NCBI RefSeq assembly: GCF_014844035.1
Contig: NZ_CP062159.1
Coordinates: 3,782,001-3,846,000 of the forward strand
Origin: Flavobacterium sp. MDT1-60
Lineage (GTDB): Bacteria; Bacteroidota; Bacteroidia; Flavobacteriales; Flavobacteriaceae
Length of the DNA: 64,000 nucleotides
Reading direction: 5' to 3'
Shown one piece after another: positions 2,773-18,020 of this stretch. The notes beneath the pieces are model-generated. The model had not been told where the DNA came from, searched no databases, and saw nothing but the letters and a program-made list of their open reading frames with translations. Each line of letters starts with the position of its first letter. Position 1 is the stretch's first letter. The translations under genes and the position numbers were made by a program.

Positions 2773-3888
2773 TTATTGCTGATTAAAAACGCTTCCCAAA
2801 TGCTCTTCCATTACAAAATACGGATCATGTGTCTGCGTAACAGAACGTATATGGATTAAACTAGTCTTACTCATCATTCTAAGCATTTGTCGACGTTCGC
2901 ATTTAACAATTTTGCCGTTTTCTTCTCTTTGTCCGGCTACAAAAGCACTTCGTCCATGCGCACATAAATGATTATTAACAAAAATAACATCTCCGGAATT
3001 CGGAATGTATTCACTGTTAATGAGTTCCTTCGCTTCATTCCAGAATTCTGTCAAATTGTAAAGAGCTTCAGGAGTTTGTCCGGCATTTTCGTTGAATATT
3101 TGTTCTGCAGCGTCAAAACGAATAAAAGGAAGTTCTCTGTTTCCGTATAAAACAGAAGCCGTTGGTCCTGGAACGGTTTGGTTCTCATCATAATTAGCAT
3201 CTTTAGGGCATTGATAAATAGGATCAAATAATTTTTCCATAGTTGAATTTATTGTTCCATGGGAACGAATTGAATATAAAGTTGAAGGCACTCTTTCTTC
3301 ATTTCTTAAATAAAGAAAACTTAAAAAATCGGCCTGATTGCTTAAAAAAGCATCTTCAGTATGTACATACAAATCCGTTTTAGATCCTGATCCCGTTTGT
3401 GTAGCGGCCATATTTTCATCTGGAATTACGGTATGCAAAAGTCCTCCGCCCTTTCTTTGTGCATAATATTGAACCGGTTTCGAAGGCACTGCACCATGAA
3501 GGAGTGAACATATAAACCCATATTTATTCAACTTTGCATAATCAGCGCCCTGCCAGTTTGGAGGCGTTGGTCCTAAATCTTCCTGATCAACCTCTAAAAG
3601 ACCCTGAAAAACAATTGCCCCATATTGATTTGCCGAAAAATCAGCACCAAACTGACTTAAGATTCTGCTGATACGTTCCGGAAGCAATTGAAAAGCGTGA
3701 AGATGCAATGCTGCTATATATTCGGGATTTTCATAATGATCAAAAGCTTTTACCAAAAGATTCCCAACATTTGATAAAATATTCCTTTCCTGAGGCGTTA
3801 CTTCTACAATTAATGGATTTGTAGGAATTTCAAAATTAAAACTTGTTTTAACAGATGTTTCCTCTGCAATAATGGATTGTGATTTCAT
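2773..3888 (-). CDS. Fe(II)/2-oxoglutarate oxygenase, clavaminate-synthase-like; probable L-lysine hydroxylase (KDO type)
   Basis: 371 residues. The iron facial triad can be read as H176-x-E178 (in YVHTEDAF) and H311 (in CAHGRSAF). An arginine in ERRQMLRMM (R333 or R337) is placed to bind 2-oxoglutarate. The overall pattern is that of the clavaminate synthase/AsnO/arginine-hydroxylase group, which hydroxylates free amino acids at an unactivated carbon. The KDO lysine 4-hydroxylases described from Flavobacterium, Chitinophaga and Niastella belong here. The gene is divergent from a siderophore operon that begins with a PLP decarboxylase, and it shares the control region at 4050-4105. Inference: it makes hydroxylysine, which is decarboxylated to hydroxycadaverine. 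Other basic amino acids cannot be excluded as substrates. Confidence 0.75.
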   Translation of the reverse strand: MKSQSIIAEETSVKTSFNFEIPTNPLIVEVTPQERNILSNVGNLLVKAFDHYENPEYIAALHLHAFQLLPERISRILSQFGADFSANQYGAIVFQGLLEVDQEDLGPTPPNWQGADYAKLNKYGFICSLLHGAVPSKPVQYYAQRKGGGLLHTVIPDENMAATQTGSGSKTDLYVHTEDAFLSNQADFLSFLYLRNEERVPSTLYSIRSHGTINSTMEKLFDPIYQCPKDANYDENQTVPGPTASVLYGNRELPFIRFDAAEQIFNENAGQTPEALYNLTEFWNEAKELINSEYIPNSGDVIFVNNHLCAHGRSAFVAGQREENGKIVKCERRQMLRMMSKTSLIHIRSVTQTHDPYFVMEEHLGSVFNQQ

Positions 3889-4049
3889 TTTTTCAATTCA
3901 TTTATAGTTATTAATAGACTAGGGTTGTAAACTTTACAATTAATTAATATTCAAATAAATACATAATAAAAAACAGAAGCGCATATTTTATTATGTACGG
4001 ACATTCGTATATTTTTTTTGCAATTATTTTTTTTATTGAGATTAATTTA

Positions 4050-4105
4050 TACATTTGTCAAACACTATTCTTATTTATTCTAAATAATAATTACTTACAA
4101 ATATA
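4050..4105. promoter_or_regulatory. Divergent control region with iron-box-like palindrome
   Basis: A -7 element TACATTTG (4050-4057) points right to the siderophore operon. TATATTTG (4105-4098, minus) points left to the oxygenase. Between them is the palindrome TTATTTA-TTC-TAAATAA (4071-4087). Near-identical 17-mers occur at the receptor and PepSY promoters (17807-17823 and 17993-18009). No convincing -33 TTG is seen for either direction. The motif is a candidate Fur-type site. The regulator assignment is inference; the motif itself is seen directly. Confidence 0.5.
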
Positions 4106-4157
4106 TCTGTATTTAATTTAAATAAAAAAGAATTTTCTTAAAAAATTTCCAAAAAGC

Positions 4158-4790
4158 ATGAAAATCAAGACTAAGTCCAGTAAAATCAAGGAATCAGATT
4201 ACTCTGATAAACTAAATAAAATTTCGAAGAATATTCGTAAAAGAAGAAGTGTCTATGCTGATGAGTTTATCAAAAAAGAAATACCTCAGAAACTACTCGA
4301 AGAGATTCTAATTAATGCTACATGGGCTCCCAATCATAAAATGACAGAGCCATGGAGGTTTATTGTTTTTAAAGGAAAATATCTCAAAGAATATGGCGAC
4401 TATATGGCTCATTACTACAAAGATTTCTATAATGAATTGTCCTATGAAGCTCAAAACGAGAAGCTCAAATACCTCAGAAATTATCCATTAAACGCAGCCT
4501 GCTTAATTGGTGTCATCATGGTGCGAAATGCCAAAATTAATTTGCCGGAATGGGAAGAAATCGCCGCAGTTTCTTCAGCCGTGCAAAATATTGCCCTTAC
4601 GTGCACCGCTCATAAAATTGGCAGTTATTGGAGTACAAAACCAGTCGCTATCGATTATGTGGCACAATTTGGCCTGGCAGAAAATGAAAAATCATTAGGG
4701 CTTCTTTATCTGGGTTATTATCCCGAAGACTTAAAATCATCCACAAAAAAGAGAACTCCCTTATCTAAAAAAGTCCTCTATCTCGAATAA
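4158..4790 (+). CDS. Nitroreductase-family flavoprotein, first gene of the siderophore operon
   Basis: 210 residues. The core matches small FMN-dependent nitroreductases of the YdjA kind: RKRRSVYADEF at about residue 30 (the N-terminal R-R-S phosphate-binding segment), ATWAPNHKMTEPWRFIV at about 55, and a conserved AAVSSAVQNIALTCTAHKIGSYWS helix at about 135. It lies 24 nt before the decarboxylase gene and in the same direction, so it is probably co-transcribed from the iron-box promoter. Its role in siderophore metabolism is unknown; reduction of a hydroxamate or flavin supply are possibilities. The first 20 residues are lysine/serine-rich and probably disordered. Confidence 0.8.
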   Translation: MKIKTKSSKIKESDYSDKLNKISKNIRKRRSVYADEFIKKEIPQKLLEEILINATWAPNHKMTEPWRFIVFKGKYLKEYGDYMAHYYKDFYNELSYEAQNEKLKYLRNYPLNAACLIGVIMVRNAKINLPEWEEIAAVSSAVQNIALTCTAHKIGSYWSTKPVAIDYVAQFGLAENEKSLGLLYLGYYPEDLKSSTKKRTPLSKKVLYLE

Positions 4791-4814
4791 TAACTAAACC
4801 CTAAATATTTTTTT

Positions 4815-6338
4815 ATGAATAATACCACACTAATCAAAGAAGAAGTGTCTGACAAAGCACTTTCGCAGAACCATGATTTTTACAAAGACCTATTCCACCA
4901 AAATTCCGGTACCGAATATGCTCAGGCTGTACAATTAGCACAGGAACGCGTCTCCAATTTCCTCAAAAACAACCGTAAACCTTTTAGCGGAATCAGACCG
5001 GACGAGATGAAATCTAAAATTGAAGCAATAGATTTCGAATCGCCACTACCCGATTATGAAAGTCTGCTTAATGAAGTCGATGAAATTTATGTAAAACATG
5101 CTACTGCTTACCACCTTCCTGAATACATCGCGCACTTAAACTGCCCGGTTGTGATACCGGCTTTGGCGGCAGAAGTTTTGATAAGTGCCATCAATTCTTC
5201 CCAGGATACTTATGACCAAAGTGCTGGCGGAACATTTATGGAGCGCAAACTAATCGATTGGACAAGCGAGCAAATTGGATATACCAATGGCGATGGTATT
5301 TTTACTGCCGGAGGTTCTCAAAGTAATTTAATGGGATTGCTTCTGGCCAGAGATTACTATTCGTTGGAATATCAAAAATGGAATATTAAACTGGACGGTC
5401 TTCCTCCTGATGCTTCTAAATTCAGGGTATTTGTTTCGGATAAGGCGCATTTCAGCAACCATAAAAATGCCTGGATTTTAGGTCTTGGTGAACAAGCCAT
5501 TGTACATGTTGGTGTTGACCAAAGATATCGTATGGATCCTGAAAAACTGGAAAAAGCAATTGCTCAGGAAATCGAAAAAGGAAATATCCCAATCGCTATT
5601 ACGGCAACTGCAGGTACTACAGATTTTGGAAATGTTGATCCACTGCAAGCTATCGCTGCTATTGCCAATCGCAACAACTTATGGCTTCATGTCGATGCTG
5701 CTTACGGTTGTGGATTGTTATTGACCGAAAAACACAGACATCTTTTAAACGGAATTGAACTGGCTGATTCTGTAACTATCGACTACCACAAATCGTTTTT
5801 CCAACCCATAAGCAGCAGTGCTTTTATTGTGAAAAACAAACTTCACTTGAATATTATCAAGCACCACGCTGATTATTTAAATCCGAAAGAGCAGAATTAC
5901 GACGCGCTTCCGGCTCAGATTAATAAATCGATTATTCAGAGTACACGTCGTTTTGATGCACTCAAACTTTGGTTTACACTTCGTTATATGGGAAAAGAAA
6001 AGCTGGGACAATTTACGGATACTATAATCGAAACCACTCAAAGAACTGCTGCTTATCTTGAAGCCGATGAAAACTTTGAGCTTTTATGCCACTCAGACAT
6101 GGGCGTTCTGGTATTCCGTTATCTTGACGGCCCGGCTGAATCCAGCTCTTGCGAGGTCAATCAATACATCAAGGAAAAACTCTTTTTTAGCGGCGAAGTT
6201 CTCGTTGCCAGCACCAAAGTAGATGGAGAATTCTATTTGAAGTTTACCATTTTTAATCCGCTTACCACTCTAAATGACATCAAAAATATTCTTAACCTTA
6301 TAAAACAAAATGGAAATGAATACCACAGACTTAACTAA
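4815..6338 (+). CDS. PLP-dependent group II decarboxylase, probable lysine/hydroxylysine decarboxylase
   Basis: 507 residues, fold type I. The PLP lysine is K326 in TIDYHKSFFQP, preceded by the cofactor-stacking HVDAAYGCG motif at about residue 293. The N-terminal half contains YHLPEYIAHLNCP and the GIFTAGGSQSNLMGLLLAR motif typical of the glutamate/DOPA/diaminobutyrate decarboxylase family, which includes the DesA-type lysine decarboxylases of siderophore loci. It would supply cadaverine, or hydroxycadaverine if the adjacent oxygenase acts first. Its last 29 bases overlap the next gene, which implies tight translational coupling. The substrate is inferred from context. Confidence 0.88.
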   Translation: MNNTTLIKEEVSDKALSQNHDFYKDLFHQNSGTEYAQAVQLAQERVSNFLKNNRKPFSGIRPDEMKSKIEAIDFESPLPDYESLLNEVDEIYVKHATAYHLPEYIAHLNCPVVIPALAAEVLISAINSSQDTYDQSAGGTFMERKLIDWTSEQIGYTNGDGIFTAGGSQSNLMGLLLARDYYSLEYQKWNIKLDGLPPDASKFRVFVSDKAHFSNHKNAWILGLGEQAIVHVGVDQRYRMDPEKLEKAIAQEIEKGNIPIAITATAGTTDFGNVDPLQAIAAIANRNNLWLHVDAAYGCGLLLTEKHRHLLNGIELADSVTIDYHKSFFQPISSSAFIVKNKLHLNIIKHHADYLNPKEQNYDALPAQINKSIIQSTRRFDALKLWFTLRYMGKEKLGQFTDTIIETTQRTAAYLEADENFELLCHSDMGVLVFRYLDGPAESSSCEVNQYIKEKLFFSGEVLVASTKVDGEFYLKFTIFNPLTTLNDIKNILNLIKQNGNEYHRLN

Positions 6339-8757
6339 TTTTCATCAGCTGGCAGAACAGGTAAATTTTAAATCACTGCTCAATTGTTATTGCCGCGAAT
6401 TCAGTAATTGGAGCCGCTACGAAGGCATTCCTAAATACGATCAGACACTTGCTGACTTTATGCAGACTATTGATCACAGCTCTTTTCTTAGGTTTGATTT
6501 TACTACTATTGGTCAGGAAGTTTTTGCTCCGTTGACTTATTTTTCAGAAAGCGGCGTTCATTCTTTCGGTTTTCCGGTTGTGTCGCGTAATGTTGCCACA
6601 GATGAATTCAGAGCAATTAATCCGATGGAATTTACGGAACTTGTTGCTGCTTATTCCAAAACAGATTATCCCGATATGGATTCCGTTCCTACGCAAAAAC
6701 GTATGAAAAACAGTATTGAGAATTTGGCTTTATACCTCGAACATTATAAAAATAGTGAGCACTCCGTCAATAATGCTGAACAAAGTTTTATAGAATCTGA
6801 ACAATCTTTGATTTTGGGACACAGTGTTCATCCATTACCAAAAAGCAGAGAGGGCTTTACCAAAGAAGAATTGCTTCAATATTCTCCTGAAACTTCAGGT
6901 AAATTTCCTTTGCACTTTTTCCTGATTCATCCTGAAAATGTACTAGAAAAAAGTGCTGAAGACTATTTGATGACGGACTATCTGAAAAAAGAAATTTTAA
7001 AATATGCAGATAAAAACGCCAAAGAATTACTAGATTTTTATACCCAATATAAAATAGTTCCTACGCATCCCTGGGAAGCCAATTATTTACTGGATTTGCC
7101 AGAAGTAAAAGAAATGCAATCCAGGCAACTGCTTTTTAGTTTAGGGCAATTCGGACCTGCGTATACGGCAACATCCTCTGTTCGTACGGTTTATAATGCT
7201 GAAAGCGAATGGATGTACAAATTCTCTTTGCACGTAAAAATCACCAACTCATTTCGTGTTAATTATTTACATGAATTGAATCGCGGCTATGATGCAGCAC
7301 AACTCATGAAAACCGATTGGGGAAAAGGAATTCAGAAAGATTATCCTCAAATACAGCTTATTACAGATCCTGCTTTTATTGCCGTAATTTATAATGATAA
7401 AGTTATTGATGGTTTCAGTACAAGTGTGCGCCAAAATCCTTTTCATGGAGCCAATGCCAGAAAAAATGTAACGATGGTGGCATCACTTTGTCAGGACGGA
7501 ATTCTGGGCGAAACACCAAGAATCGTCAATCTTATCAATGAAGCAGCCAAAAGACAAGACGCTTCTGTAGCCGAAACTGCGCTTTCATGGTTCAGGCAAT
7601 ATTTGAATATTACCATTACTCCTTTGGTTGGAATTTTTAATAAATACGGCTTCGGATCTGAGTTTCATCAACAAAATATGCTAGTTGAATTTGATGAAAA
7701 TCTATTTCCTTCAAAACTCTATTTTAGAGACAATCAGGGGTATTTTTTCCGTCAGGGAAAAGTGGAAGAACTGGAACGTTTGATTCCTGATTTTGGAAAA
7801 GAAAGCAGATCTTTTATTGCCGAAAAAAGAATTATTGATTTCTGGGGCTATTATTTGTTGGTAAATCACTTGTTTGGAGTAGTTAACATCCTGGGCAAAA
7901 ATAAATTGGCTGATGAAACCGAACTTCTTAATTTGATATACGAAGCCTTAAAAAAAGAAGAAGATTCAGATACTACAGGTCTGGTTTCACATTTTACTAA
8001 TAGTGTAAAATTGGTCGTAAAAGGAAATCTCCTGACAAGTTTAAACAATATGGATGAGGCCAGTGCGCCGAGAACAAATCCAGCGGTTTACAAAACTTTC
8101 CCAAATCCTTTAAACAAACACTTTTTCTCTAAAAAACTGATTAATCCACAAGAAAACACTACCGTTTTCAGTCGCTTTTTTGAGAAAGAAAATATCACGA
8201 TAACATTGCGCCCTGTTGATATTGATAAAGATTTGGAGATGCTTCACGAATGGTTTCATCGTGAGCACGCGCTGAAAATCTGGCAAATGAACTGGCCAAT
8301 TCGTGAATTGGAAGCTTATTACAGAATGTTACTTCCGGGAGATCATTCGCATAGTTTTATTGGGGAAGCAAATGGAGTTCCGACTTTTAATATCGAAGTT
8401 TATTGGGCAAGCCGTGATATAGTGGGAGAATATTATGAGGTGCTGCCATCTGATTATGGAACGCACCAATTTATCGCGCCTACTGATCCTAAATTAAAAT
8501 ACGGTTCACCGGCAACACAATCTATGATGGATTTTGTTTTGGCCGAATCAAAGGTTGGTAAAATGGTTGGTGAAGGTTCTGTAGATTCGATTGCATCCAT
8601 GATGAACAAGGCTCACGTAGGTTTTAAAATCGAAAAAGTAATCGAAATGCCACACAAAAAAGCCAATCTAAACTTCTGTTACAGAGAATGGTATTGGGCA
8701 AAATTTCCTGCTGCCAAAGATTTTCAAAATAGTACAGTTTCAGCACCTCAGCTTTAA
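6310..8757 (+). CDS. Two-domain siderophore enzyme: NIS synthetase (IucA/IucC) fused to a GNAT N-acyltransferase
   Basis: 815 residues, much longer than a single IucA/IucC protein (about 600). Residues 1-610 carry the NIS synthetase features VPTHPWEANYLL, SVRTVYNAESEWMYKFSLHVKI (nucleotide-binding region), FHGANARKNVTM and FGSEFHQQNML. From about residue 635 comes a GNAT domain of the siderophore acyltransferase kind, starting ITLRPVDIDKDLEMLHEWF and ending FKIEKVIEMPHKKANLNFCYREWYWAKF. The fusion joins acylation of an N-hydroxydiamine with ATP-dependent condensation onto a carboxylate. The start could be the ATG at 6310 or at 6316; 6310 is used here. It overlaps the decarboxylase gene by 29 nt. 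Confidence 0.88.
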   Translation: MEMNTTDLTNFHQLAEQVNFKSLLNCYCREFSNWSRYEGIPKYDQTLADFMQTIDHSSFLRFDFTTIGQEVFAPLTYFSESGVHSFGFPVVSRNVATDEFRAINPMEFTELVAAYSKTDYPDMDSVPTQKRMKNSIENLALYLEHYKNSEHSVNNAEQSFIESEQSLILGHSVHPLPKSREGFTKEELLQYSPETSGKFPLHFFLIHPENVLEKSAEDYLMTDYLKKEILKYADKNAKELLDFYTQYKIVPTHPWEANYLLDLPEVKEMQSRQLLFSLGQFGPAYTATSSVRTVYNAESEWMYKFSLHVKITNSFRVNYLHELNRGYDAAQLMKTDWGKGIQKDYPQIQLITDPAFIAVIYNDKVIDGFSTSVRQNPFHGANARKNVTMVASLCQDGILGETPRIVNLINEAAKRQDASVAETALSWFRQYLNITITPLVGIFNKYGFGSEFHQQNMLVEFDENLFPSKLYFRDNQGYFFRQGKVEELERLIPDFGKESRSFIAEKRIIDFWGYYLLVNHLFGVVNILGKNKLADETELLNLIYEALKKEEDSDTTGLVSHFTNSVKLVVKGNLLTSLNNMDEASAPRTNPAVYKTFPNPLNKHFFSKKLINPQENTTVFSRFFEKENITITLRPVDIDKDLEMLHEWFHREHALKIWQMNWPIRELEAYYRMLLPGDHSHSFIGEANGVPTFNIEVYWASRDIVGEYYEVLPSDYGTHQFIAPTDPKLKYGSPATQSMMDFVLAESKVGKMVGEGSVDSIASMMNKAHVGFKIEKVIEMPHKKANLNFCYREWYWAKFPAAKDFQNSTVSAPQL

Positions 8758-8775
8758 TCCATAAAAAAAATAACA

Positions 8776-10128
8776 ATGAGTACAGAAAAAATATATTCGG
8801 TAATAGGTATCGGAATTGGTCCCTTTAATCTTGGGCTTGCAGCTCTTATCGAACCTGTTGAAGAATTATCAGCATTATTTTTTGATCAGTCAGAAAACTT
8901 TGACTGGCATCCGGGTCTTATGCTGAATAACGCAACGCTTCAGGTGCCGTTTTTAGGAGATTTGGTCACAATGGCGGATCCAACAAACAGATACAGCTTC
9001 TTAAATTATATCAAAGAAAGCGGCCGATTGTATAAATTTTACATTCGTGAAAACTTCTTTATTTACAGAAGAGAGTATAATGAATATTGCAAATGGGTCG
9101 CTGCTCAGTTGCCAAACTGCAGGTTTTCACATAAAGTAGTTTCAATAGATTATGTTGATGATGTTTATAAAATAATCGTCATGAATACTCAGACTTGTAT
9201 AACAGCTACTTATTATGCTGATAAAATTGTTTTAGGTACAGGAACTTCGCCACATATTCCTGAGTTTATTGATCAGGAAGTGCTGCATAATGTAATTCAT
9301 GCTTCGAAATATTTGTATTTCAAATCGCATATTCGCAAAAATGCATCGGTAACTATTATCGGTTCCGGACAAAGTGCAGCAGAAGTTTTCCGTGATCTTT
9401 TGCCTGAAACTGAAAATGGATTACAACTGAAATGGTTTACCCGTTCCTCTCATTTTTTTCCACTTGACAATAAATCAAAATTGACGTTGGAACTAACTTC
9501 TCCAGAATATGTAGATCATTTTCATAGTCTTTCTCCTGAAAAACGTCAACAACTTCTGGCCAGACAGCACGGGCTTTATAAAGGTATTGATCAGGAATTA
9601 ATCAATGAAATTTTCGACAGTTTATACGAAATGAGTTTAGAAGATAAAGCGCTGAATGTAGAATTGCGTTCGAATATGCGCCTGGCTTCAGTCAATCAGG
9701 AAGCCGACGGATCTTATAATCTGGATTTTATACATACTGAATTGGATCAGCCTTTCGATGATCAAACCGATTATGTGATTCTGGCAACAGGCTATAAATA
9801 CAAAGAACCAGCGATTCTTTCAGGAATTGAAAGCAAAATCAATCGTTTGGAAAATGGTTTGTTTAATGTAAATCGCAATTACACGATCGACAAGAATGGC
9901 ACCGATATTTTTGTTCAGAATGCCGAATTACACACGCACGGACTCTCGACTCCTGACTTAGGAATGGGCGCTTACAGAAATTCATGCATTATAAATCAAT
10001 TGGCAAATCGTGAAGTCTATAAGGTAGAAAAACGAATTGCTTTCCAACAATTTGGTGTACAAAAAACAGCATCAACATTGGTTGAAAATGATGTTCTGGA
10101 ACTAATAAACGAACAATTAAATAATTAA
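8776..10128 (+). CDS. Lysine/ornithine/diamine N-monooxygenase (IucD/DesB family)
   Basis: 450 residues. A flavin-dependent N-hydroxylating monooxygenase: FAD-binding VIGIGIGPFNLGLAALI at the N-terminus, the LQVPFLGDLVTMADPTNRYSFLNY substrate/FAD segment at about residue 60, NADPH-binding VTIIGSGQSAAEVFRDLLP at about 195, and the ATGY motif (VILATGYKYKEPAIL) at about 335. It should hydroxylate the terminal amine of cadaverine or lysine, giving the hydroxamate precursor for the acyltransferase domain of the upstream gene. It follows that gene by 18 nt and precedes the second synthetase by 11 nt. The exact amine is not decided by sequence. Confidence 0.92.
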   Translation: MSTEKIYSVIGIGIGPFNLGLAALIEPVEELSALFFDQSENFDWHPGLMLNNATLQVPFLGDLVTMADPTNRYSFLNYIKESGRLYKFYIRENFFIYRREYNEYCKWVAAQLPNCRFSHKVVSIDYVDDVYKIIVMNTQTCITATYYADKIVLGTGTSPHIPEFIDQEVLHNVIHASKYLYFKSHIRKNASVTIIGSGQSAAEVFRDLLPETENGLQLKWFTRSSHFFPLDNKSKLTLELTSPEYVDHFHSLSPEKRQQLLARQHGLYKGIDQELINEIFDSLYEMSLEDKALNVELRSNMRLASVNQEADGSYNLDFIHTELDQPFDDQTDYVILATGYKYKEPAILSGIESKINRLENGLFNVNRNYTIDKNGTDIFVQNAELHTHGLSTPDLGMGAYRNSCIINQLANREVYKVEKRIAFQQFGVQKTASTLVENDVLELINEQLNN

Positions 10129-10139
10129 ATAAAATCCGG

Positions 10140-11972
10140 ATGACAACCTCAGAAAATATATTCAAAGACGCACAGCATCTTAATTCACCTATTTGGGATA
10201 AGGTAAATCGGAGCTTACTCGCCAAAAGTATCTCGGAATTGATGCGCGAAGATGTGGCAAAACCCCAAATAATTAGCCGTGAAGAAGATGGTTTGACCCA
10301 TTTTATTTTAAAAACCGATAAAGAAAACATTTATTACCAGTTTTCAGCTTATCCACGATTTCTAAACTACTGGCATATCGTCAAAGAAAGCATTTATAAA
10401 ATTGAAGATGAACAGAAATTAGACAGTGTTGATGTGCCAAATTTCTTTCTGGAACTTCAGGAAACTTTTGGAATTAATTCTTTCACCCTCGCCCATTATA
10501 TTGAGGAATTGCTTCACACTTTATATGCCGATGCTTTTATTCATTCAAAACGCCGATTATCTGCAGCAAAATTAGCCAATGCTGATTTTCAAACAATAGA
10601 ACACAGTCTCGACGGTCATCCGTGGGTAATTGTAAACAAGGGCCGAATTGGTTTTGACTCCGAAGATTATGAAAATTACACGCCGGAATCCGGCCAAAAA
10701 ACACGTTTAGTCTGGATTGCGGCACATAAAAAAAGAGCCACTTTACGTCTGCAAACCGATATGGATGATCAGACCTTCTATGAAAATGAAATTGGTTCAG
10801 AGAAAATAGCTGTTTTCAAAAACAAGTTAATCCAGTCAAAAGTAAATCCGGATGATTATATTTTTATTCCCGTGCATTTATGGCAATGGCAGAATAAACT
10901 GGTTATGCAATTTGCTAATGATATTGCTTCTAAACATCTTATTCCATTAGAATTAACTGAAGATATTTATAGTCCGCAACAAAGTATTCGTACTTTTTTT
11001 AATCAAAGCAAACCTCATAAACATTACGTAAAAACGTCAATGTCGATCTTAAACACGAGCCATATCAGAGGTTTATGTCCGAGACAATTGTCGGTGGCGC
11101 CACGTCTTACCGGTTATCTTAAGGATATTCTTAAAAAAGATCTTCATTTACAAAAAATGGGCGTAATACTTTTAGGCGAAATGGTTTCTGTTAGCTATAC
11201 ACATCCCAGTTACAGTAAAATCGTAAATCCTCCCTATCAATACAATGAGTATTTGGGTGCTATGTGGCGCGAGAGTCCAATAAATTTTCTAAAACACGGA
11301 GAAAATTTAATGACCATGGCGGCATTACTTTATGTTGACGATCACGGAAAAAGTTTGGTGGAAGAGCTTATTGAAAAATCAGGACTCTCGACAGAACAAT
11401 GGCTAAAAGCCTATATGACAGCGTATCTTAAACCGGTACTTCAAATCTATTACCAACATTCACTATGCATCGATCCGCATGGCCAAAATGTGATTCTTAT
11501 TCTTAAAGATTACGTTCCAACCCGTATTGCTTTGCAGGACTTTGTGGGTGATATTTTAATTAATGAAGAAGGAAAGAAAAAGCTTCCACAGGAATTTATC
11601 GAAAACATGTTTGTAGCTTCTCCAAACCCTGAAAATGCGCCTTTAACAATCCTTATTGCCGTTTTCGATGCTTTTTTCAGATACCTGAGCGATGTAATGA
11701 TTACAAGTGCAAACTATTCAGAAACTTCTTTTTGGAATTGCGTTCATGATATTATTTTAGAATATCAGCAAGAACATCCGGAACTGCAGGATATGTTTGA
11801 TAAGTACAATTTATTCATTCCTGAATTTAAACGTCTTATTTTCAATAGCCGCCGTTTATATAATGGTTACGAAGAAACTGCTGGTTTTCCGCACATGAAA
11901 AAAAGTGGTTTTATTCCGAATCCTTTGCATCAACTGATTCATGAAGAAGTACTAACCGAAAAACAAAACTAA
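10140..11972 (+). CDS. NIS siderophore synthetase, IucA/IucC family (second copy)
   Basis: 610 residues, the usual family length. Recognisable blocks are LDGHPWVIVNKGRIGF at about residue 158, FIPVHLWQWQNKLVMQF at about 240, SIRTFFNQSKPHKHYVKTSMSILNTSHIRGL at about 282 and SLCIDPHGQNVILILKDYVPTRIALQDF at about 440. NIS synthetases adenylate a carboxylate (citrate, succinyl or similar) and condense it with an amine or hydroxylamine. Together with the fused synthetase upstream, two condensation steps are available, as in aerobactin-type assembly. The stop codon overlaps the start of the exporter gene by one base. Confidence 0.92.
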   Translation: MTTSENIFKDAQHLNSPIWDKVNRSLLAKSISELMREDVAKPQIISREEDGLTHFILKTDKENIYYQFSAYPRFLNYWHIVKESIYKIEDEQKLDSVDVPNFFLELQETFGINSFTLAHYIEELLHTLYADAFIHSKRRLSAAKLANADFQTIEHSLDGHPWVIVNKGRIGFDSEDYENYTPESGQKTRLVWIAAHKKRATLRLQTDMDDQTFYENEIGSEKIAVFKNKLIQSKVNPDDYIFIPVHLWQWQNKLVMQFANDIASKHLIPLELTEDIYSPQQSIRTFFNQSKPHKHYVKTSMSILNTSHIRGLCPRQLSVAPRLTGYLKDILKKDLHLQKMGVILLGEMVSVSYTHPSYSKIVNPPYQYNEYLGAMWRESPINFLKHGENLMTMAALLYVDDHGKSLVEELIEKSGLSTEQWLKAYMTAYLKPVLQIYYQHSLCIDPHGQNVILILKDYVPTRIALQDFVGDILINEEGKKKLPQEFIENMFVASPNPENAPLTILIAVFDAFFRYLSDVMITSANYSETSFWNCVHDIILEYQQEHPELQDMFDKYNLFIPEFKRLIFNSRRLYNGYEETAGFPHMKKSGFIPNPLHQLIHEEVLTEKQN

Positions 11973-13378
11973 TGAAAGAAGCCATTTTAAAAACCCGCTC
12001 TTTCTTTGGTCTTTTAAGGCGTTCGCTTGCAGGAACTGAAAGCAATTTCACTTCCGGAAGTATCAACAAAACAATCATTTTGTTGTCAGTGCCAATGGTT
12101 GCAGAGCTTTTGATGGAATCCTTATTTGTATGTTCGAACCTTTTCTTTGTGAGTACATTGGGGACAAATGCAATTTCTATTGCCGGAGCGACTACTACTT
12201 TTATTACGTTTTGTTATTCCGTTTCAATAGGTCTTGGAATTGCTGCATCGGCAATGATTTCGAGAAGAATTGGCGAGAAAAAATTCAAAGCAGCAGGCCA
12301 AACCACCATGCAGGTAATTTACATAACTGTACCAATTGCCGCACTTATAAGCATCATTTGTTCTATTTGGGCAACTGATATTATGAGTGCCATGGGACTT
12401 TCTGATGCAATGGTTCAGGAAGGAACGTCGTACGGAATTGTCATGTTTGCGTCAAGCGGATTTTTAATTCTCCGCATCGTAATCAACGGAATCTTTCGTG
12501 GTGCGGGCGATGCATCGACGGCGATGAGAATACTCTGGCTTTCGAATGCCATAAATATTGCACTATGTCCAATATTCATCTTTGGCTGGGGACCAATTCC
12601 GGCTTACGGTTTACTGGGAGTTGGATTAGCGACTTTAATTGCCAGAGTTATTGGGGTACTTTATCAGGCGTGGCATCTGGTAAGAGGAAAAACGGTATTA
12701 AAAATAGGATTAGCGCAGTTAGTGTTCAATCTGGCTATTTTCAAAAGAGTGGTAAAACTGGCTTTTGGCGGAACGGTTCAGTTTATTATTCCGGCTTCAA
12801 GTTGGGTTTTTATGATCAAAATTATGTCTCATTTTGGTGAAAGTGCGCTTGCGGGATATATTCTGGCACAAAGAGTAACCTCTATCGCCACAATGCCGGC
12901 CTGGGGCCTTGGGAACGCAGCAGGAATTTTAACCGGACAAAATCTTGGAGCAAAACAACCGGAAAGAGCTGAAAAATCGGTTTGGAGAGCGGGAATGCTT
13001 AATATGGGATTTCTTGTTTTAATTGGAGTCTGCTGGATTTTCCTTGCAGTTCCTGTTGTCAAAATTTTTACAGCTATTCCTGAAGTTATCTCTTTTAGTA
13101 CGATGTATATCCATCTCATTTCTATCGCCTATATACTTCTCGGTTATACGATGGTTATTTCAAGAGCGCTCAACGCAGCAGGCGAAGTAAAAGTCGTTAC
13201 CTGGCTTTATATCCTAATGTTTTACATCGTTCAGATTCCGCTAGCCTATACCTTAGGAATCTCTTTTGAACTGGGATCAAATGGTGTTTTTACAGCCATC
13301 CTTATTTCGGAAATTGTATTGGCAGTCGCCTGTATTATTGTCTTCCGTAAAGGAAAATGGAAGCATACCAAGGTTTAA
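11972..13378 (+). CDS. MATE-family efflux transporter, probable siderophore exporter
   Basis: 468 residues with about 12 hydrophobic helices. Two MatE halves begin around SINKTIILLSVPMVAELLMESLF and LAQLVFNLAIFKRVVKLAFGGTVQFIIP. The conserved RIVINGIFRGAGDASTAMRILWLSN segment and its counterpart GYILAQRVTSIATMPAWGLGNAAGILTGQNLG are clear. MATE proteins are Na+ or H+ antiporters in the inner membrane. Its start codon sits in the TAATG overlap with the preceding synthetase gene, so it is translationally coupled to siderophore synthesis. Export of the product is the simplest role, by context. Confidence 0.9.
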   Translation: MKEAILKTRSFFGLLRRSLAGTESNFTSGSINKTIILLSVPMVAELLMESLFVCSNLFFVSTLGTNAISIAGATTTFITFCYSVSIGLGIAASAMISRRIGEKKFKAAGQTTMQVIYITVPIAALISIICSIWATDIMSAMGLSDAMVQEGTSYGIVMFASSGFLILRIVINGIFRGAGDASTAMRILWLSNAINIALCPIFIFGWGPIPAYGLLGVGLATLIARVIGVLYQAWHLVRGKTVLKIGLAQLVFNLAIFKRVVKLAFGGTVQFIIPASSWVFMIKIMSHFGESALAGYILAQRVTSIATMPAWGLGNAAGILTGQNLGAKQPERAEKSVWRAGMLNMGFLVLIGVCWIFLAVPVVKIFTAIPEVISFSTMYIHLISIAYILLGYTMVISRALNAAGEVKVVTWLYILMFYIVQIPLAYTLGISFELGSNGVFTAILISEIVLAVACIIVFRKGKWKHTKV

Positions 13379-13401
13379 AAAACTAAAGATTTAGACATTT
13401 C

Positions 13402-13634
13402 ACCCCGCTGGGGTTTAACGAAATTAATTCGTGATTTTCTATAAACATGATGTTCCGCCGGAACTAATATATCAGGGGTTTAACCGAACGAATTTTAGGC
13501 TTTCCTATAAATATTAAGTTCTTCATGTATAAACATTTCGTCTCAGTAGGGACTTAAACTTTAATAAAAGCTCCAGCGGAGCTTTATATTTATAGCTTAT
13601 CCGAATGCCATTTTTATAAAAGCTCCAGCGGAGC
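13402..13634. repeat. Comb of short GC-rich hairpins in the 338-bp gap after the exporter gene
   Basis: The gap 13379-13716 holds small hairpins with three-base loops: ACCCC-GCT-GGGGT (13402-13414), GTTCC-GCC-GGAAC (13452-13464), AAAGCTCC-AGC-GGAGCTTT (13567-13585) and GCTCC-AGC-GGAGC (13622-13634). The spacing within pairs is about 50 bp, with degenerate copies between. 'Ctataaacat'-like strings recur between units. It could act as a transcription attenuator between the exporter and the ACP gene, or be a REP-like element. Confidence 0.6.
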
Positions 13635-13716
13635 GATATTTTCGCCATCTGCTTTATTATGTTAAAACATTTTACACAAAATTTTAAAAATAACAATTAA
13701 TTTAAATATTAGAAAT

Positions 13717-13959
13717 ATGAATACAATAGAACAATTACACGGCGTATTTTCAAGAGCTTTTGAAATTCCGGTTGAAGCAGTAAATGACCAATTAGAGTAT
13801 CAGGCTATTGCCGAATGGGATTCTATGAGCCATTTGGTATTAATAGAAGAACTGGAAAGCACTTATAAAATTTCTATAGAAATGGAAGATATTCTGGAAA
13901 TGGGAAGCGTAGCAAAAATCAAAGATATTCTTAAAAAATATGGATTTGAAATTAATTAG
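13717..13959 (+). CDS. Acyl/peptidyl carrier protein
   Basis: 80 residues with the carrier-protein pattern. The phosphopantetheine-accepting serine is S36 in AEWDSMSHLVLIEELE, and a typical last helix follows (SVAKIKDILKKYGF). It lies 15 nt upstream of an AMP-dependent ligase, which most likely charges it. It is separated from the siderophore operon by the hairpin comb, so co-transcription is uncertain. A role in supplying an acyl group to the siderophore, or in an unrelated small pathway, are both open. Confidence 0.88.
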   Translation: MNTIEQLHGVFSRAFEIPVEAVNDQLEYQAIAEWDSMSHLVLIEELESTYKISIEMEDILEMGSVAKIKDILKKYGFEIN

Positions 13960-13974
13960 AATAGACCTAAACCT

Positions 13975-15366
13975 ATGGAACTATACAATTTAATCAGGAA
14001 AAACGAAAAACTGACCTTTACAGATTCCAGTACAGGGCTTTCAAAATCTATTGCAGATATGCATCAGTCTTTGGAAATTGAAAACCTGCGTTCTGTGGTT
14101 TTTATTTACAATGACAATCAGTTACCGGCAATCGAAACGTTACTAAACTTTTATCAAAGCAGGTACACAATTGCGCTGTTGGGAATGGGGCTATTGGAAG
14201 ATTTTAAGGAGAATTTAGAACAAAAATATACTCCTTATTACATTTACGATCCAACTCGTGCTGAAATAGAAGGTTACACTGCTGTGAATGCTTCAGATAC
14301 GATTGTTTTGTTTAAGCGAAATGTAAATTTAGTATATCCAATACATCCAAAAATTAAACTTTTGCTGAGCACTTCAGGAACAACGGGTTCACCAAAATTT
14401 GTCAGACTTTCTGATGAAAACCTGGTGCAGAATGCGAAGTCGATTGTGGAATATATGCCGATTCGAACAGATGATGTTGTGCCCTTAAATGTGCCGATTA
14501 ATTTTGTTTACGGCTTATCTATTTTCACGACAAATTGCATCAAAGCCAATCAGATTGTTTGTACAGATAAAGACGCTTTTCAAAAAGAATTCTGGGCCGA
14601 TTTTAAGAAATATGGATACTCTACCTTAGGTGGAGTTCCTTATTTTTATGAGATGTTGTACAGTATTGGTTTTTTCAAAAAAGATCATCCTTCACTTCGA
14701 TATCTTACGCATACAGGCGGAATGCTGAATCATAAATTGATTGAAGCTATTTCGGATTTCAGTGAAAAATTCGGAAAACAATTCTTTGCGCAGTACGGTC
14801 AAACCGAAGCTTGTGGCCGAATGGCTTATTTGCCTCCAAAAGATCTTTTGAGAAAAGGAACTTCAATTGGTTTACCTGTAAAAAACGGGAGTTTCGAAAT
14901 CGACAATGAAACAGATGAACTGATTTATACAGGTCCAAATGTATTTGGAGGATATGCTAATGTGAGAGGTGATCTTCAGTTTTTTGAACAGCAGGAAAAA
15001 CTCCACACAGGAGACAAAGCCCGAAAAGATGATGAAGGTTACTACTATATTGTAGGCAGGATAAAACGAATTGTAAAATTATTTGGTGTACGACTTAATC
15101 TCGATGAAACAGAACTGCTTCTGAAAGATGCTTTGGGCGGACAAACTTTTATTTGTTTAGGAATAAACGATAAACATTTAGCTGTTATGTATACGGATAA
15201 GAACTTAAACAAAGAGTTAATTCTAAAGGTTTTAAAAGCAAAACTGAATCTTCATGCCAATTCTTTAAAAGTGATGTTTATAGAAGATGTGCCACTTACG
15301 CCAAATGGAAAAGTAAATTATCCGTTGCTTAAAGAAGCTTTAGAAATAGAGATCCTGGTGAAATAA
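13975..15366 (+). CDS. AMP-dependent acyl/amino-acid ligase (ANL superfamily)
   Basis: 463 residues. The adenylation signatures are LLLSTSGTTGSPKFVRLS (P-loop, about residue 125), the FFAQYGQTEACGRM motif (about 267), HTGDKARKDDEGYYYIVGRIKRIVKLFGVRLN (hinge region, about 345) and the catalytic lysine in PLTPNGKVNYPLLKE near the C-terminus. Such stand-alone enzymes activate a carboxylic acid and load it onto CoA or a carrier protein; the ACP gene immediately before it suggests the latter. The protein is shorter than typical acyl-CoA synthetases (500-550). The substrate is not predictable here. Confidence 0.88.
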   Translation: MELYNLIRKNEKLTFTDSSTGLSKSIADMHQSLEIENLRSVVFIYNDNQLPAIETLLNFYQSRYTIALLGMGLLEDFKENLEQKYTPYYIYDPTRAEIEGYTAVNASDTIVLFKRNVNLVYPIHPKIKLLLSTSGTTGSPKFVRLSDENLVQNAKSIVEYMPIRTDDVVPLNVPINFVYGLSIFTTNCIKANQIVCTDKDAFQKEFWADFKKYGYSTLGGVPYFYEMLYSIGFFKKDHPSLRYLTHTGGMLNHKLIEAISDFSEKFGKQFFAQYGQTEACGRMAYLPPKDLLRKGTSIGLPVKNGSFEIDNETDELIYTGPNVFGGYANVRGDLQFFEQQEKLHTGDKARKDDEGYYYIVGRIKRIVKLFGVRLNLDETELLLKDALGGQTFICLGINDKHLAVMYTDKNLNKELILKVLKAKLNLHANSLKVMFIEDVPLTPNGKVNYPLLKEALEIEILVK

Positions 15367-15439: not shown

Positions 15440-17777
15440 TTAGAATCTGAAAGTCAAATTTACTAAGAAATTTGCTGGTGGCTGTGGCGCTCCCCAAGAA
15501 CTCCAGTATTTTTCATTGGTAAGGTTGTTTAACTTAACCCCCACTCTCCAGTTTGGTTGCTCATAAAATACAGTTTGATTAAAAATCGTGTAAGATGGAA
15601 TATAAAAAGTATTCGCAGTCGACATATAACTTTTGTCCACATAATTCGCTCCAACTCCAATACCAAATCCTTTAAAACATTTTGAAATTTATAAGAAGCC
15701 CAAAAGTTGACTACATCTTCTGGTGCATCTTGTGCTTTATTACCTTCAATCGCTTTGTTAGCCTCACTTGTTTTTACGATACGATTATCATTATAAGCAT
15801 ATCCTGCAGTAATATCCAAACCAGGAAGCGGGTGCGCTAAAAATTCAAACTCAACACCTTTACTTACCTGTTTTCCATCTTGTTGGTAAACTAAATCAGC
15901 TTGTCTTATTACAGCGTTATCATTCGTAATTTTATAATAACTAACTGTTGCACTTATTTTTTATTAAACAATTCGGTCTTTATACCTGCCTCATATTGAT
16001 TTGCGTAAAGCGGATCTAATATCAATTGCTCGCCACTTGGTTGTAAAACCGGTGCTAAATTCTGGAATCCGTTCATGTAATTTCCGAATATAGAAACCTG
16101 ATCTTTAACAACCTGATATACCACTCCTAATTTTGGTGATAATGAATTTTGGCTATAGCCCGGTACTGTTCCGCTTTCTTTTCGGTCAAAATTATCTAAA
16201 CGCAAACTGGCCATTGCGTACAATCTGTCTGCAACACCTAATACATAAGACGCATAACCGCTAAAAGTATATTCATCTCTTCCTGCTCTAATAACCGGTG
16301 CCAACAATACTTTATCAATTTCATTTCTTCTTACCGGAGTAAAATTGGTTGTAACATCAATTGTTCTGAATGGAGCTGTAGGTGTTGGTGTTGACGAAAA
16401 TGTATCCGTATAATATCTGTAATTAACACCAGCTAAGATTTTATGTTTTAAAATTCCTGTCGAAAATTCACCATTAATATTTTCCTGAATATTAGTGTAA
16501 TTACTTGAAATAGGTCCAAAAACCGTTGCGCGTATAGTAGCTGTAGTAGGCGAAGTCCAGGTTGGTAAAACCTGATAGCTGTAATCCACATCTTCATTTA
16601 CATAAGAGAACAAAGTAGTTGACTTCCAATGATCTGATATTTGATACTCTGCCTGAACGAATGCTTTTGATGAAGACGATTTTGCATCAGCATCATCATG
16701 TACTAATGATTTTTTATAATCTAATTTTATATCTCCCGGATTAGTAATTCCAGAAGCAGTGGTAACAGTTGGGAATAAGGCTCTGGTATTATTCACCTTA
16801 AATAATTCGGCATCTATATTGAAAGTAAGTTTTTCACTTGCTTTAAAAGTAATACTCGGAGTAAAAGATAATGTTTTATTAAAACCGTAATCTAAAAAGC
16901 TTTTTTCATTATTAACCGCGGCATTAAGTCTAAAAAGTACTTTTTTATCTTTAGTTAAAGGAGTATTAATGTCAACTGTAAGTCGGTTTACACCATAACT
17001 TCCGCCTGTATACGAAATTTCAGTAGTTGATGCTTCAAAAGGCTTTTTAGTAACCAGATTAACAACTCCTCCAAAAGAAGAAGCAGACGATCCAAACAAA
17101 GTTCCTGAAGGTCCTTTTAACACTTCAATTCGCTCTACGTTTGCAATACCAACAGTTGATCTTCCTGATAATGTTTCCATTCCGTTTCGGGAATTAATTC
17201 CCACAGTGAAACCTCTAAAAATAACTGCAAATCCGCCTGAAGGATAATTAAGCGGTACAACTCCCGGTGCGTTTCTTATAGCGCCAGCTGCATCAATTAC
17301 AATTTGTTCCTGAATTAGTTCTTTGTGTATAACATTATAAACCTGTGGATTTTCTATGTTTTTAAGCGGCATTCTGGCAACATATTGTGTTTTTTTAGAA
17401 AGAAGACTTTTTCTGTTACTAATAACAACTTCCTGCAGCTCTTTATTAGAAACGCTCAATTGTTCATTGACTACAGTCGTTTTATTAATTTCAATCATAA
17501 CCTGCTTTTCCACAGTTTCATAACCAGCCAGAGAGATTTGTAAGGTGTAGTTGTTTTCTCTTACTCTGCTGATTTCAAAATTTCCATCTTCATCTGTAGT
17601 AGTTCCATATTTTGAATTTTTAAGTATAATATTTACATCTGATGCAGGTTTCCCATCAGAAGTGTTGATATGTCCTTTTATTTTTCCATGATTTTGTTGT
17701 GCAAAAGAAGAAAGGGCTGAAAATAAAAGCCCCATCATAAATAAAAACTTTGATGTTCTTAAACTAAGATATTTCAT
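15440..17777 (-). pseudogene. TonB-dependent siderophore receptor, interrupted by two single-base frameshifts as assembled
   Basis: The first 607 codons (17777-15954) read signal peptide, carboxypeptidase-regulatory-like domain (HGKIKGHINTSDGKPASDV), plug (GGFAVIFRGFTVG, IEVLKGPSGTLFGSSASSFGGVVNLVTKK) and barrel. The frame then stops in an A6 run (15957-15962, plus-strand T). Restoring one A continues as ISATVSYYKITNDNAVIRQA. A second missing base near 15669-15673 breaks the frame again. Correcting it gives KGFGIGVGANYVDKSYM and the proper end, with LTFRF at the C-terminus. The full product would be about 780 residues, normal for ferric-siderophore receptors. It is the expected importer for the neighbouring siderophore. 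Both lesions are in short homopolymers, so sequencing error is as likely as real inactivation. Confidence 0.85.
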
Positions 17778-17992: not shown

Positions 17993-18020
17993 ATATTTAG
18001 TCTAAATAAGTTTAAATTTG
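17993..18020 (+). promoter_or_regulatory. Promoter region of the PepSY gene with iron-box-like site
   Basis: ATATTTAGTCTAAATAA (17993-18009) contains the 6-1-6 palindrome ATTTAG-T-CTAAAT. It lies directly before a -7 element TAAATTTG (18013-18020). A repressor here would overlap the spacer. No clear -33 TTG is seen. The remainder of the 17778-18082 gap shows no gene. Confidence 0.5.

What the first reader, a model, noticed from the sequence alone, without database searches (positions are those of the whole stretch)
2773..13378. NIS siderophore operon with a divergent lysine-hydroxylase-like oxygenase: possible hydroxycadaverine hydroxamate
Seen: 2-oxoglutarate oxygenase, PLP decarboxylase, N-monooxygenase, IucA/IucC fused to GNAT, a second IucA/IucC and a MATE exporter, with overlaps and gaps of 0-24 nt. 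Known: the oxygenase resembles KDO-type lysine 4-hydroxylases; the decarboxylase and N-hydroxylase resemble the DesA/DesB steps of cadaverine siderophores. Inference: lysine to 4-hydroxylysine to 3-hydroxycadaverine, then N-hydroxylation, acylation and condensation. The product would be a hydroxylated relative of arthrobactin or bisucaberin. A carbon-hydroxylated diamine in this route would be unusual outside alcaligin-type siderophores.
Basis: partly seen in the sequence, partly recalled or inferred. Interest (0 to 1): 0.75.

Follow-up and report, generated by a model that had tools for sequence, protein, structure and literature searches.

The report
Gene cluster for chryseochelin-like iron scavenger
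These genes look like the recipe for a recently described family of bacterial iron-grabbing molecules built from a hydroxylated diamine, and they suggest a natural job for a lysine-hydroxylating enzyme that chemists use as a biocatalyst.

Summary
The genes are there and the core inference holds. The oxygenase is an 85%-identical ortholog of crystallised L-lysine 4-hydroxylase KDO5, whose own gene lies in the same cluster. Of 80 KDO loci, 79 carry decarboxylase, N-monooxygenase and a NIS synthetase; the exception is a contig edge. An IucA-type plus a type-C synthetase points to a citrate dihydroxamate, not bisucaberin. Chryseochelin A (Chryseobacterium, 2023) is citrate plus two N-hydroxy-N-fumaryl-3-hydroxycadaverine units; all 18 KDO-bearing Chryseobacterium loci fetched carry this cluster. 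The paper gives no gene cluster, and my searches found none. Independent support for hydroxylation before decarboxylation: of 190 near-invariant decarboxylase positions, two sister strains without KDO depart at exactly three (I332V, I369V, S376T), each to the state of the four nearest KDO-less decarboxylases; their type-C synthetase also changed at three. This is one loss event. An iron-box-like palindrome lies in the KDO promoter region and before the receptor. Shown: genes, synteny, signatures. Inferred: product, fumarate, regulation. Verdict: real, mostly explained, a new variant of a known kind.

The parts
2773..3888 (-). KDO: Fe(II)/2-oxoglutarate L-lysine 4-hydroxylase (371 aa)
   Evidence: phmmer E 7e-217 to 6EUO 'L-lysine 4-hydroxylase'; 85% identity to L081, whose protein equals 6EUO over 372/372; the 17 KDO5 active-site positions checked are identical
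4071..4087 (.). Palindrome TTATTTAGAATAAATAA, iron-box-like, in the divergent KDO/operon promoter region
4158..4790 (+). Nitroreductase-family flavoprotein (210 aa), first gene of the operon; role unknown
   Evidence: PF00881 E 2e-18; similar gene in 43 of 80 KDO loci, 0 of 19 Chryseobacterium/Elizabethkingia loci
4815..6338 (+). PLP decarboxylase, proposed 4-hydroxylysine decarboxylase (507 aa; predicted PLP Lys326; signature I332, I369, S376)
   Evidence: PF00282; phmmer E 5e-142 to 5O5C, desferrioxamine decarboxylase; signature
6310..8757 (+). NISa-GNAT: IucA-type synthetase fused to a GNAT N-acyltransferase (815 aa)
   Evidence: PF04183, PF06276, PF13523; best solved relative IucA 5JM7 E 5e-47, GNAT part matches DfoC 5O7O
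8776..10128 (+). NMO: diamine N-monooxygenase (450 aa)
   Evidence: PF13434; E 6e-131 to 6XBB, 8e-131 to 5O8P, 8e-121 to putrescine N-hydroxylase 7US3
10140..11972 (+). NISb: type-C synthetase (610 aa)
   Evidence: PF04183, PF06276; alcaligin synthetase 2X0O E 5e-126, DesD, DfoC
11972..13378 (+). MATE exporter (468 aa)
   Evidence: PF01554; TIGR00797 above cut-off
13717..13959 (+). Acyl carrier protein (80 aa; EWDSMSH, predicted phosphopantetheine Ser36)
   Evidence: PF00550 23.2 bits over cut-off 20.8; WDS motif kept in the 14 orthologs printed
13975..15366 (+). LIG: adenylate-forming ligase (463 aa), proposed fumarate-ACP ligase
   Evidence: PF00501; best solved relatives oxalate-CoA ligases, an NRPS adenylation protein and malonyl-CoA synthetase
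15443..17777 (-). TonB-dependent siderophore receptor, broken: the ortholog aligns in three successive frames
   Evidence: longer intact orthologs in L052 and L184
17807..17823 (.). Second exact match to the iron-box-like pattern, 30 bp before the receptor start
17993..18009 (.). Third match (1 mismatch) before the PepSY_TM gene
18115..19206 (+). PepSY_TM protein, possible partner in ferric-siderophore uptake/reduction
   Evidence: PF03929 E 3e-65; the role is recalled, not tested

Best explanation
The locus makes and exports a chryseochelin-type citrate dihydroxamate siderophore. KDO hydroxylates free L-lysine at C4; the PLP decarboxylase converts 4-hydroxylysine to 3-hydroxycadaverine (1,5-diaminopentan-3-ol); NMO N-hydroxylates one amine; the ligase loads a dicarboxylic acid, most likely fumarate, onto the acyl carrier protein and the GNAT domain transfers it to the hydroxylamine; the IucA-type synthetase condenses the first unit with citrate and the type-C synthetase the second; the MATE protein exports it; the TonB receptor and PepSY_TM protein serve re-uptake; a shared iron-box-like palindrome controls both halves. 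Shown here: genes, families, synteny, KDO active site, motif positions, residue signatures. Inferred: each catalytic step in this strain, fumarate as acyl group, iron regulation, and the product.
For: KDO ortholog of a characterised C4 hydroxylase with the same active-site residues; 79 of 80 KDO loci in NIS clusters; the cluster in 18 of 18 KDO-bearing Chryseobacterium loci and 1 Elizabethkingia locus, the former being the genus from which chryseochelin A (3-hydroxycadaverine, fumaric acid, citrate) was isolated; IucA-type plus type-C synthetases; decarboxylase positions 332/369/376 track KDO; ACP and ligase in 18 of 18 order-sample clusters with both synthetases, while the ligase is absent genome-wide from 5 of 5 KDO-less NIS genomes of that sample that lack the pair (G049, G277, G072, G128, G206) and no ACP was found in the 4 of those loci fetched; motif upstream of KDO in 52 of 80 loci, 29 of them outside Flavobacterium, against 51 of 1600 mononucleotide shuffles.
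Against: No chemistry for this strain. For the published producers the passage I read describes typing by 16S, so their cluster is not seen; and Chryseobacterium genomes with a different, KDO-less NIS cluster exist (G049, G277). The ligase lacks the histidine-bearing stretch of the oxalate/malonate ligases it matches best (NFVYGL against FHVHGL and YHTHGL) and matches other adenylating enzymes almost as well, so its substrate is open. The nitroreductase is unexplained. The KDO-loss signature rests on one clearly nested loss event, and the tree node between KDO-linked and KDO-less decarboxylases has support 0.035. The motif is missing in 28 of 80 loci. The receptor gene is broken in this genome.
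Confidence: 0.82

Rival explanations
1. KDO hydroxylates a later intermediate (cadaverine, the N-hydroxy-N-acyl unit or the finished siderophore) rather than free lysine.
For: KDO is outside the operon on the other strand here, and in a Sporocytophaga MAG (L129) it is 8.6 kb from a split decarboxylase.
Against: In KDO5 the carboxylate of lysine is bound by Arg338 and Arg145; both are conserved in 81 of 81 KDOs, and a diamine has no such carboxylate. Decarboxylase residues change with KDO loss, expected only if KDO acts upstream of it.
Confidence: 0.05
2. The ligase and carrier protein supply fatty acyl groups (as in chryseochelin C) or succinate, and the fumaryl group comes from elsewhere.
For: Chryseochelin C carries fatty acids; the ligase also matches fatty-acyl ligase models; related clusters with GNAT domains but without ACP/ligase exist.
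Against: ACP/ligase accompany the synthetase pair in 18 of 18, and chryseochelins A and B, not C, are named as the main siderophores; best solved relatives include dicarboxylate ligases.
Confidence: 0.3
3. The product is a macrocyclic or linear succinyl hydroxamate of the bisucaberin/desferrioxamine kind.
For: Decarboxylase, N-monooxygenase and the type-C synthetase resemble those of desferrioxamine.
Against: An IucA-type synthetase is fused to the GNAT, whereas DfoC's synthetase part matches the type-C gene. DfoC-like clusters occur in the same order (G072, G128; G206 by its hits); none of the three genomes has KDO or the ligase.
Confidence: 0.05

Closest known systems
Chryseochelins A-C (Rehm et al. 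2023, PMC9989332; abstract, passages and section 23 read)
   Same: Predicted diamine (3-hydroxycadaverine), citrate core, two hydroxamates; the 18 KDO-bearing Chryseobacterium loci fetched carry this cluster
   Different: The paper reports structures; the word 'cluster' does not occur in it and the pathway is called unproven. Flavobacterium clusters add a nitroreductase that those Chryseobacterium loci lack, so the product may differ.
KDO5 and relatives, L-lysine 4-hydroxylases (PMC6224419, passages read; PDB 6EUO)
   Same: Ortholog; same metal, lysine and 2-oxoglutarate residues
   Different: Studied as biocatalysts; 'siderophore' does not occur in the three papers searched (PMC6224419, PMC11066847, PMC12930750). 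Tyr233, proposed to steer C4 selectivity (PMC11066847, passages), is Y in 50, F in 10, L in 19, H in 2 of 81 orthologs.
Desferrioxamine enzymes DfoJ/DfoA/DfoC (5O5C, 5O8P, 5O7O; gene names partly recalled) and 6XBB (recalled as DesB)
   Same: Decarboxylase, N-monooxygenase, GNAT and type-C synthetase homologs
   Different: No C-hydroxylase, IucA-type synthetase or ACP/ligase in that pathway (recalled); decarboxylase residues V/V/T instead of I/I/S
Aerobactin IucA/IucC and arthrobactin/schizokinen-type citrate hydroxamates
   Same: IucA-type plus type-C synthetases
   Different: Hydroxylated diamine, GNAT fused to the IucA-type synthetase, carrier protein and ligase

Membership tests
KDO-type L-lysine 4-hydroxylase | 2-His-1-Glu iron site, Arg145, Arg334/338 and lysine-contact residues of KDO5 | tested here: met
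   All 17 positions checked are identical in the window protein
KDO-type L-lysine 4-hydroxylase | C4 hydroxylation of free L-lysine | not testable with these tools
   Needs an enzyme assay; ortholog KDO5 does it (PMC6224419)
NIS citrate-hydroxamate siderophore cluster | IucA-type and type-C synthetases | tested here: met
NIS citrate-hydroxamate siderophore cluster | Diamine supply, N-hydroxylase, N-acyltransferase, exporter, receptor | tested here: met
   receptor present but broken
Chryseochelin biosynthesis | Same cluster in Chryseobacterium | tested here: met
   L133-L149 and L151: 18 of 18 with KDO, DC, both synthetases, NMO, MATE, ACP, LIG; these loci were found by KDO, so the share of Chryseobacterium that lacks it is not measured
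Chryseochelin biosynthesis | Cluster seen in a proven producer strain | not tested
   No genome of CHR2, CHR5 or CHR6 was looked for
Chryseochelin biosynthesis | Product contains 3-hydroxycadaverine, citrate and fumarate | not testable with these tools
   No metabolite data for this strain
Chryseochelin biosynthesis | Enzyme that activates fumarate | tested here: inconclusive
   Ligase plus ACP present; dicarboxylate specificity not shown
Desferrioxamine/bisucaberin cluster | Type-C synthetase only, without an IucA-type partner | tested here: not met
   IucA-type synthetase present

The most novel reading that the evidence does not exclude
The hydroxyl that KDO installs is not decoration but the nucleophile of the second condensation: the type-C synthetase first makes a citrate ester on the 3-OH (chryseochelin B), which then shifts O-to-N to chryseochelin A, and the hydroxamate acyl group comes from fumaryl-ACP rather than a CoA ester. 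When KDO is lost, decarboxylase and type-C synthetase must both re-adapt, as seen in G176/G520 (decarboxylase I332V/I369V/S376T; synthetase I309V/C443S/V508I, next to its RG, DPHGQN and FD motifs), while the IucA-type synthetase and N-hydroxylase need not.
Probability: 0.3. Interest if true: 0.78.

Novelty: new variant of a known kind. Interest (0 to 1): 0.62.

Why it matters
It gives a candidate gene cluster to a plant-protective siderophore family whose biosynthesis was left open, and a natural function to the KDO lysine 4-hydroxylases used in biocatalysis. It supplies a candidate three-residue marker for whether a cadaverine-type decarboxylase works on hydroxylysine or lysine, close relatives with and without KDO that are a ready natural experiment, and a candidate for carrier-protein-dependent acylation in a NIS pathway, which I do not recall from any described one.

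Tried and rejected
Structure of the ligase: five submissions met a full queue; the sixth was accepted but unfinished at nine collections; no model is used. Weak KDO hits in G204 and G039 (E about 5e-4, 76 and 51 residues) were dropped from counts. A class-wide sample for more decarboxylases gave only the window and one relative (2 of 211). The 120 ligase homologs listed (of 1248) carry only generic names. The search 'fumaryl' plus 'siderophore' gave no relevant title among the 15 listed of 78. Searches for print linking the enzymes or cluster to the siderophore: (the last, 'lysine 4-hydroxylase' with 'siderophore', 0 papers); only listings were seen except for five papers (PMC9989332, PMC6224419, PMC11066847, PMC12930750, PMC9288024). 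A paper on histidine decarboxylase specificity is not held and a search found none, so that decarboxylase positions 332 and 376 lie near the active site is recalled by analogy only. One search picked wrong reading frames for 7 of 23 loci (L190, L191, L195, L198, L199, L206, L208); from it I use only G206 and G072. NIS-like hits in G040 and G292 were not examined.

Considered and set aside: the nitroreductase as the desaturase that turns succinyl into fumaryl; rejected as the general answer because 19 of 19 Chryseobacterium/Elizabethkingia loci lack it. It could be an ene-reductase, ferric reductase or repair enzyme.
Full report
WHAT IS THERE. The window is bases 3782001-3846000 of a 5.56-Mb single-contig genome; by KDO identity its nearest named relatives are Flavobacterium. 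On the - strand, 2773-3888 encodes the 2-oxoglutarate oxygenase (KDO). On the + strand follow a nitroreductase-family gene, PLP decarboxylase (DC), IucA-type synthetase fused to GNAT (NISa-GNAT), N-monooxygenase (NMO), a second synthetase (NISb), a MATE exporter, an acyl carrier protein (ACP) and an AMP-forming ligase (LIG). A TonB siderophore receptor (-) and a PepSY_TM gene follow. The two synthetases are the only IucA/IucC matches in the genome (2 at E up to 0.001).

THE OXYGENASE. Its best solved relative is 6EUO, L-lysine 4-hydroxylase KDO5 (E 7e-217). The KDO gene of Flavobacterium sp. CF136 (locus L081) encodes exactly the 6EUO sequence, 372 of 372, and that gene lies in the same cluster. 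The residues that KDO5 uses for iron, 2-oxoglutarate and lysine (PMC6224419 and PMC11066847, passages read) are identical in the window protein at the 17 positions checked. Across 81 KDOs (window plus 80 loci) the three iron ligands, Arg145, Arg334, Arg338, Asp179, Asp230 and Asp260 never vary; Ser167 is Ala in 6, Trp112 Tyr in 2, Tyr193 Phe in 23; Tyr233, which a computational study credits with steering C4 selectivity, is Y in 50, F in 10, L in 19 and H in 2. The 19 with Leu are 18 Chryseobacterium and one Elizabethkingia; if the Chryseobacterium enzymes make the 4-hydroxylysine of the 3-hydroxycadaverine siderophore, Tyr233 is not essential.

KDO GENES LIVE IN SIDEROPHORE CLUSTERS. A scan of one genome per species kept 80 of 111 confirmed KDO relatives. 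DC, NMO and a NIS synthetase lie within the fetched flanks (up to 10 kb) in 79 of 80 each; the exception, L076, begins 201 bases before KDO at a contig edge. ACP is seen in 50, LIG in 46, a similar nitroreductase in 43, MATE in 64 and a similar GNAT in 75 of 80; ACP and LIG are lower bounds because many flanks end there. Layouts differ: NISa-GNAT plus NISb in Flavobacterium, Sinomicrobium, Aquimarina, Chryseobacterium, Niastella and Longitalea; two type-C synthetases with a shortened, core-less IucA-GNAT in Pedobacter, Sphingobacterium, Olivibacter, Flavobacterium salmonis, Flavihumibacter and some Chitinophaga; other layouts in further Chitinophaga. KDO plus DC is the constant pair.

SAMPLES NOT SELECTED BY KDO. 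In 296 genomes of the order, KDO occurs in 17 (two hits at E about 5e-4 not counted) and NISa-GNAT at E below 1e-200 in 20; 17 of those 20 have KDO, and the 17 KDO genes sit at the cluster (window plus 16 fetched). LIG at E up to 1e-60 occurs in 19: the 17, the KDO-less G176, and G030, where ACP and LIG lie in a polysaccharide cluster with an SDR gene and what looks like a GNAT-type acyltransferase (my reading of its start, no domain search). In 299 genomes of the genus, NISa-GNAT (E up to 1e-100) occurs in 25 and KDO (E up to 1e-60) in 22; four have NISa-GNAT but no KDO (G176, G520, G348, G521), one has KDO without NISa-GNAT (G473, two type-C synthetases). The two samples overlap.

THE KNOWN PRODUCT. 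Chryseochelin A (PMC9989332; abstract, passages and section 23 read) is a citrate siderophore, C24H36N4O15, with 3-hydroxycadaverine and fumaric acid, which the authors call novel substructures. 4-Hydroxylysine minus its carboxyl is 3-hydroxycadaverine, a symmetric diamine. The word 'cluster' does not occur in the text, and the authors say further studies are needed to prove the pathway. The library holds 7 papers naming chryseochelin (listing only) and none with both 'lysine 4-hydroxylase' and 'siderophore'. I therefore know of no published cluster, within CC-licensed PMC and these searches. Baud 2014 and 2017, which introduced KDOs and paired them with decarboxylases, I saw only as references. 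Decarboxylases FjdA and CpdA from Flavobacterium johnsoniae and Chitinophaga pinensis had 1.1% and 50.6% relative activity in a screen on the hydroxylysine that yields 2-hydroxycadaverine (PMC9288024, passages); whether they are the KDO neighbours I did not check, and the string '4-hydroxylysine' does not occur in that paper.

SYNTHETASE TYPES. NISa's nearest solved structure is IucA (E 5e-47; type-C relatives are far weaker), NISb's are the alcaligin synthetase, DesD and DfoC (E 5e-126 to 1e-123). That IucA-type enzymes start on citrate and type-C enzymes finish is recalled classification. The pair predicts a citrate scaffold, as in chryseochelin and arthrobactin, not a bisucaberin ring.

THE DECARBOXYLASE TRACKS KDO. 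I aligned 79 KDO-linked DCs (window plus 78 loci; L076 has none and L129's is split, both dropped) with 8 KDO-less ones. Of 190 positions at least 95% conserved among the 79, G176 and G520 depart at exactly three: I332V (six after the predicted PLP lysine), I369V and S376T. Both DCs are 85-86% identical to the window DC against 58-61% for the outgroup, pair with support 1.0 and fall inside the Flavobacterium KDO+ group (enclosing nodes 0.80, 0.75, 0.70, 0.41; the node parting KDO-linked from the four outgroup DCs only 0.035). Both have the other biosynthetic genes of the cluster; neither shows KDO in its genome (G176 at E up to 1e-3; G520 at E up to 1e-60; both about 99% complete) nor a significant remnant in the 20 kb fetched (best E 0.19 and 0.86). 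The four KDO-less outgroup DCs (G277, G049, G348, G521) read V/V/T; G128 V/V/T, G072 and G206 V/I/T, and the desferrioxamine enzyme 5O5C V/V/T by the printed alignment. So positions 332 and 376 separate the sets (one KDO+ exception, V332 in L118), position 369 less cleanly. In a leave-one-out control, KDO+ DCs depart from conserved positions 0 to 13 times, but 76 of 79 never to the KDO-less state and 3 once. Shared departures of the pair against KDO+ pairs of similar identity: DC 5 (the three plus N218T, V433L in this smaller set), reached by 1 of 254 pairs; NISb 3 (I309V, C443S, V508I), reached by 0 of 159; NISa 0, NMO 0, nitroreductase 0; MATE 1, reached by 11 of 243. Pairs are not independent, ACP and LIG were not put through this test, and this is one loss event. 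Among the 120 best DC homologs listed (of 7895; KDO-linked ones and one from a contig of the same length as G520's included), 108 read I/I/S; 10 lack Ser376, five of them in a clade with G176/G520 (support 1.0) and one, VVT in Aquimarina aquimarini, apart. By matching longest-contig lengths, a KDO protein shares a contig with 35 of 108 I/I/S DCs and 0 of the 10 (Fisher p 0.03); the label is rough, since it also misses L118's contig, where KDO is present.

WHAT THE SIGNATURE MEANS. That NISb also changed while NISa and NMO did not suggests that the second condensation feels the hydroxyl. The chryseochelin authors propose that B, with one citrate ester through the 3-OH, is the precursor of A; NISb is then the natural candidate for the ester-forming step. 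This is my inference.

THE ACYL GROUP. ACP and LIG are in the cluster in 18 of 18 order-sample clusters with both synthetases and were not found in the NISa-only clusters examined (G277, G049, G521; G348's contig ends too soon to tell). LIG's best solved relatives are oxalate-CoA ligases (E 1e-21, 9e-20), an NRPS adenylation protein (1e-18) and malonyl-CoA synthetase (3e-16), with a fatty-acyl ligase close behind (1e-15), and the histidine-bearing stretch of the dicarboxylate ligases is NFVYGL here. Fumarate loading is the simplest reading because chryseochelin carries fumarate and I saw no desaturase-like gene in the shared core (not every ORF was annotated); it is not shown.

REGULATION. The 269-nt KDO/nitroreductase intergenic region holds the palindrome TTATTTAGAATAAATAA, within a block conserved in the alignment of 22 sequences (window plus 21 Flavobacterium-type loci). 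A match with up to 2 mismatches to TTATTTAGANTNAATAA lies within 330 nt upstream of KDO in 52 of 80 loci (23 Flavobacterium-type, the group from which the pattern came, and 29 others) against 51 of 1600 mononucleotide shuffles; the 19 Chryseobacterium/Elizabethkingia loci have 1 mismatch each; Niastella, Longitalea and the Chitinophaga loci lack it. In the own genome there are 16 matches with up to 1 mismatch against 7 for the reversed control; the 4 exact ones lie at KDO, at this receptor and at two other TonB receptors; of the 12 one-mismatch sites one precedes the PepSY_TM gene and one another TonB receptor, while the other ten show no clear iron link. I read it as a Fur-like iron box; the regulator is not identified.

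LIMITS. No metabolite, enzyme or expression data. The strain's own receptor is broken across three frames, which may be real or a sequencing fault; an intact 816-aa frame 90% identical to its first 607 residues sits in KDO-less G520.

Noticed in passing
window 15443-17777 (-): TonB receptor next to the cluster is broken: an intact ortholog aligns in three successive frames; relatives L052 and L184 have uninterrupted frames.
   Followed up: partly
L110, L116, L119, L122, L126, L130, L131 (NISa_GNAT-like ORFs of 432-539 aa): In these clusters with two type-C synthetases the IucA catalytic core is missing from the IucA-GNAT protein, leaving N-terminal and C-terminal/GNAT parts.
   Followed up: partly
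window 13379-13716: The 338-nt MATE-ACP gap, only 27 nt in L052, contains two GCTCCAGCGGAGC palindromes, perhaps a small mobile repeat.
   Followed up: no
L181:8482-13795: ACP, SDR, ligase and an apparent GNAT-type gene inside a polysaccharide-type cluster: the same ACP-ligase pair may be reused to acylate another amine.
   Followed up: partly
window 26345-27952 (+): 535-aa protein matching AprA N-terminal, winged-helix and MT2-like methyltransferase domains (PF23526, PF23589, PF23525); no PKS was looked for nearby.
   Followed up: no
L077 and G472:C26:99912-101018: KDO (and NISb in L077) open frames look truncated or contain a stop: possible early KDO decay in some strains.
   Followed up: no
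G277, G049, G521, G348 (L056, L057, L186, L185): NISa-GNAT clusters in which no second synthetase, ACP, ligase or KDO was seen (G348's contig ends early): how one IucA-type enzyme would finish a siderophore is unclear.
   Followed up: no
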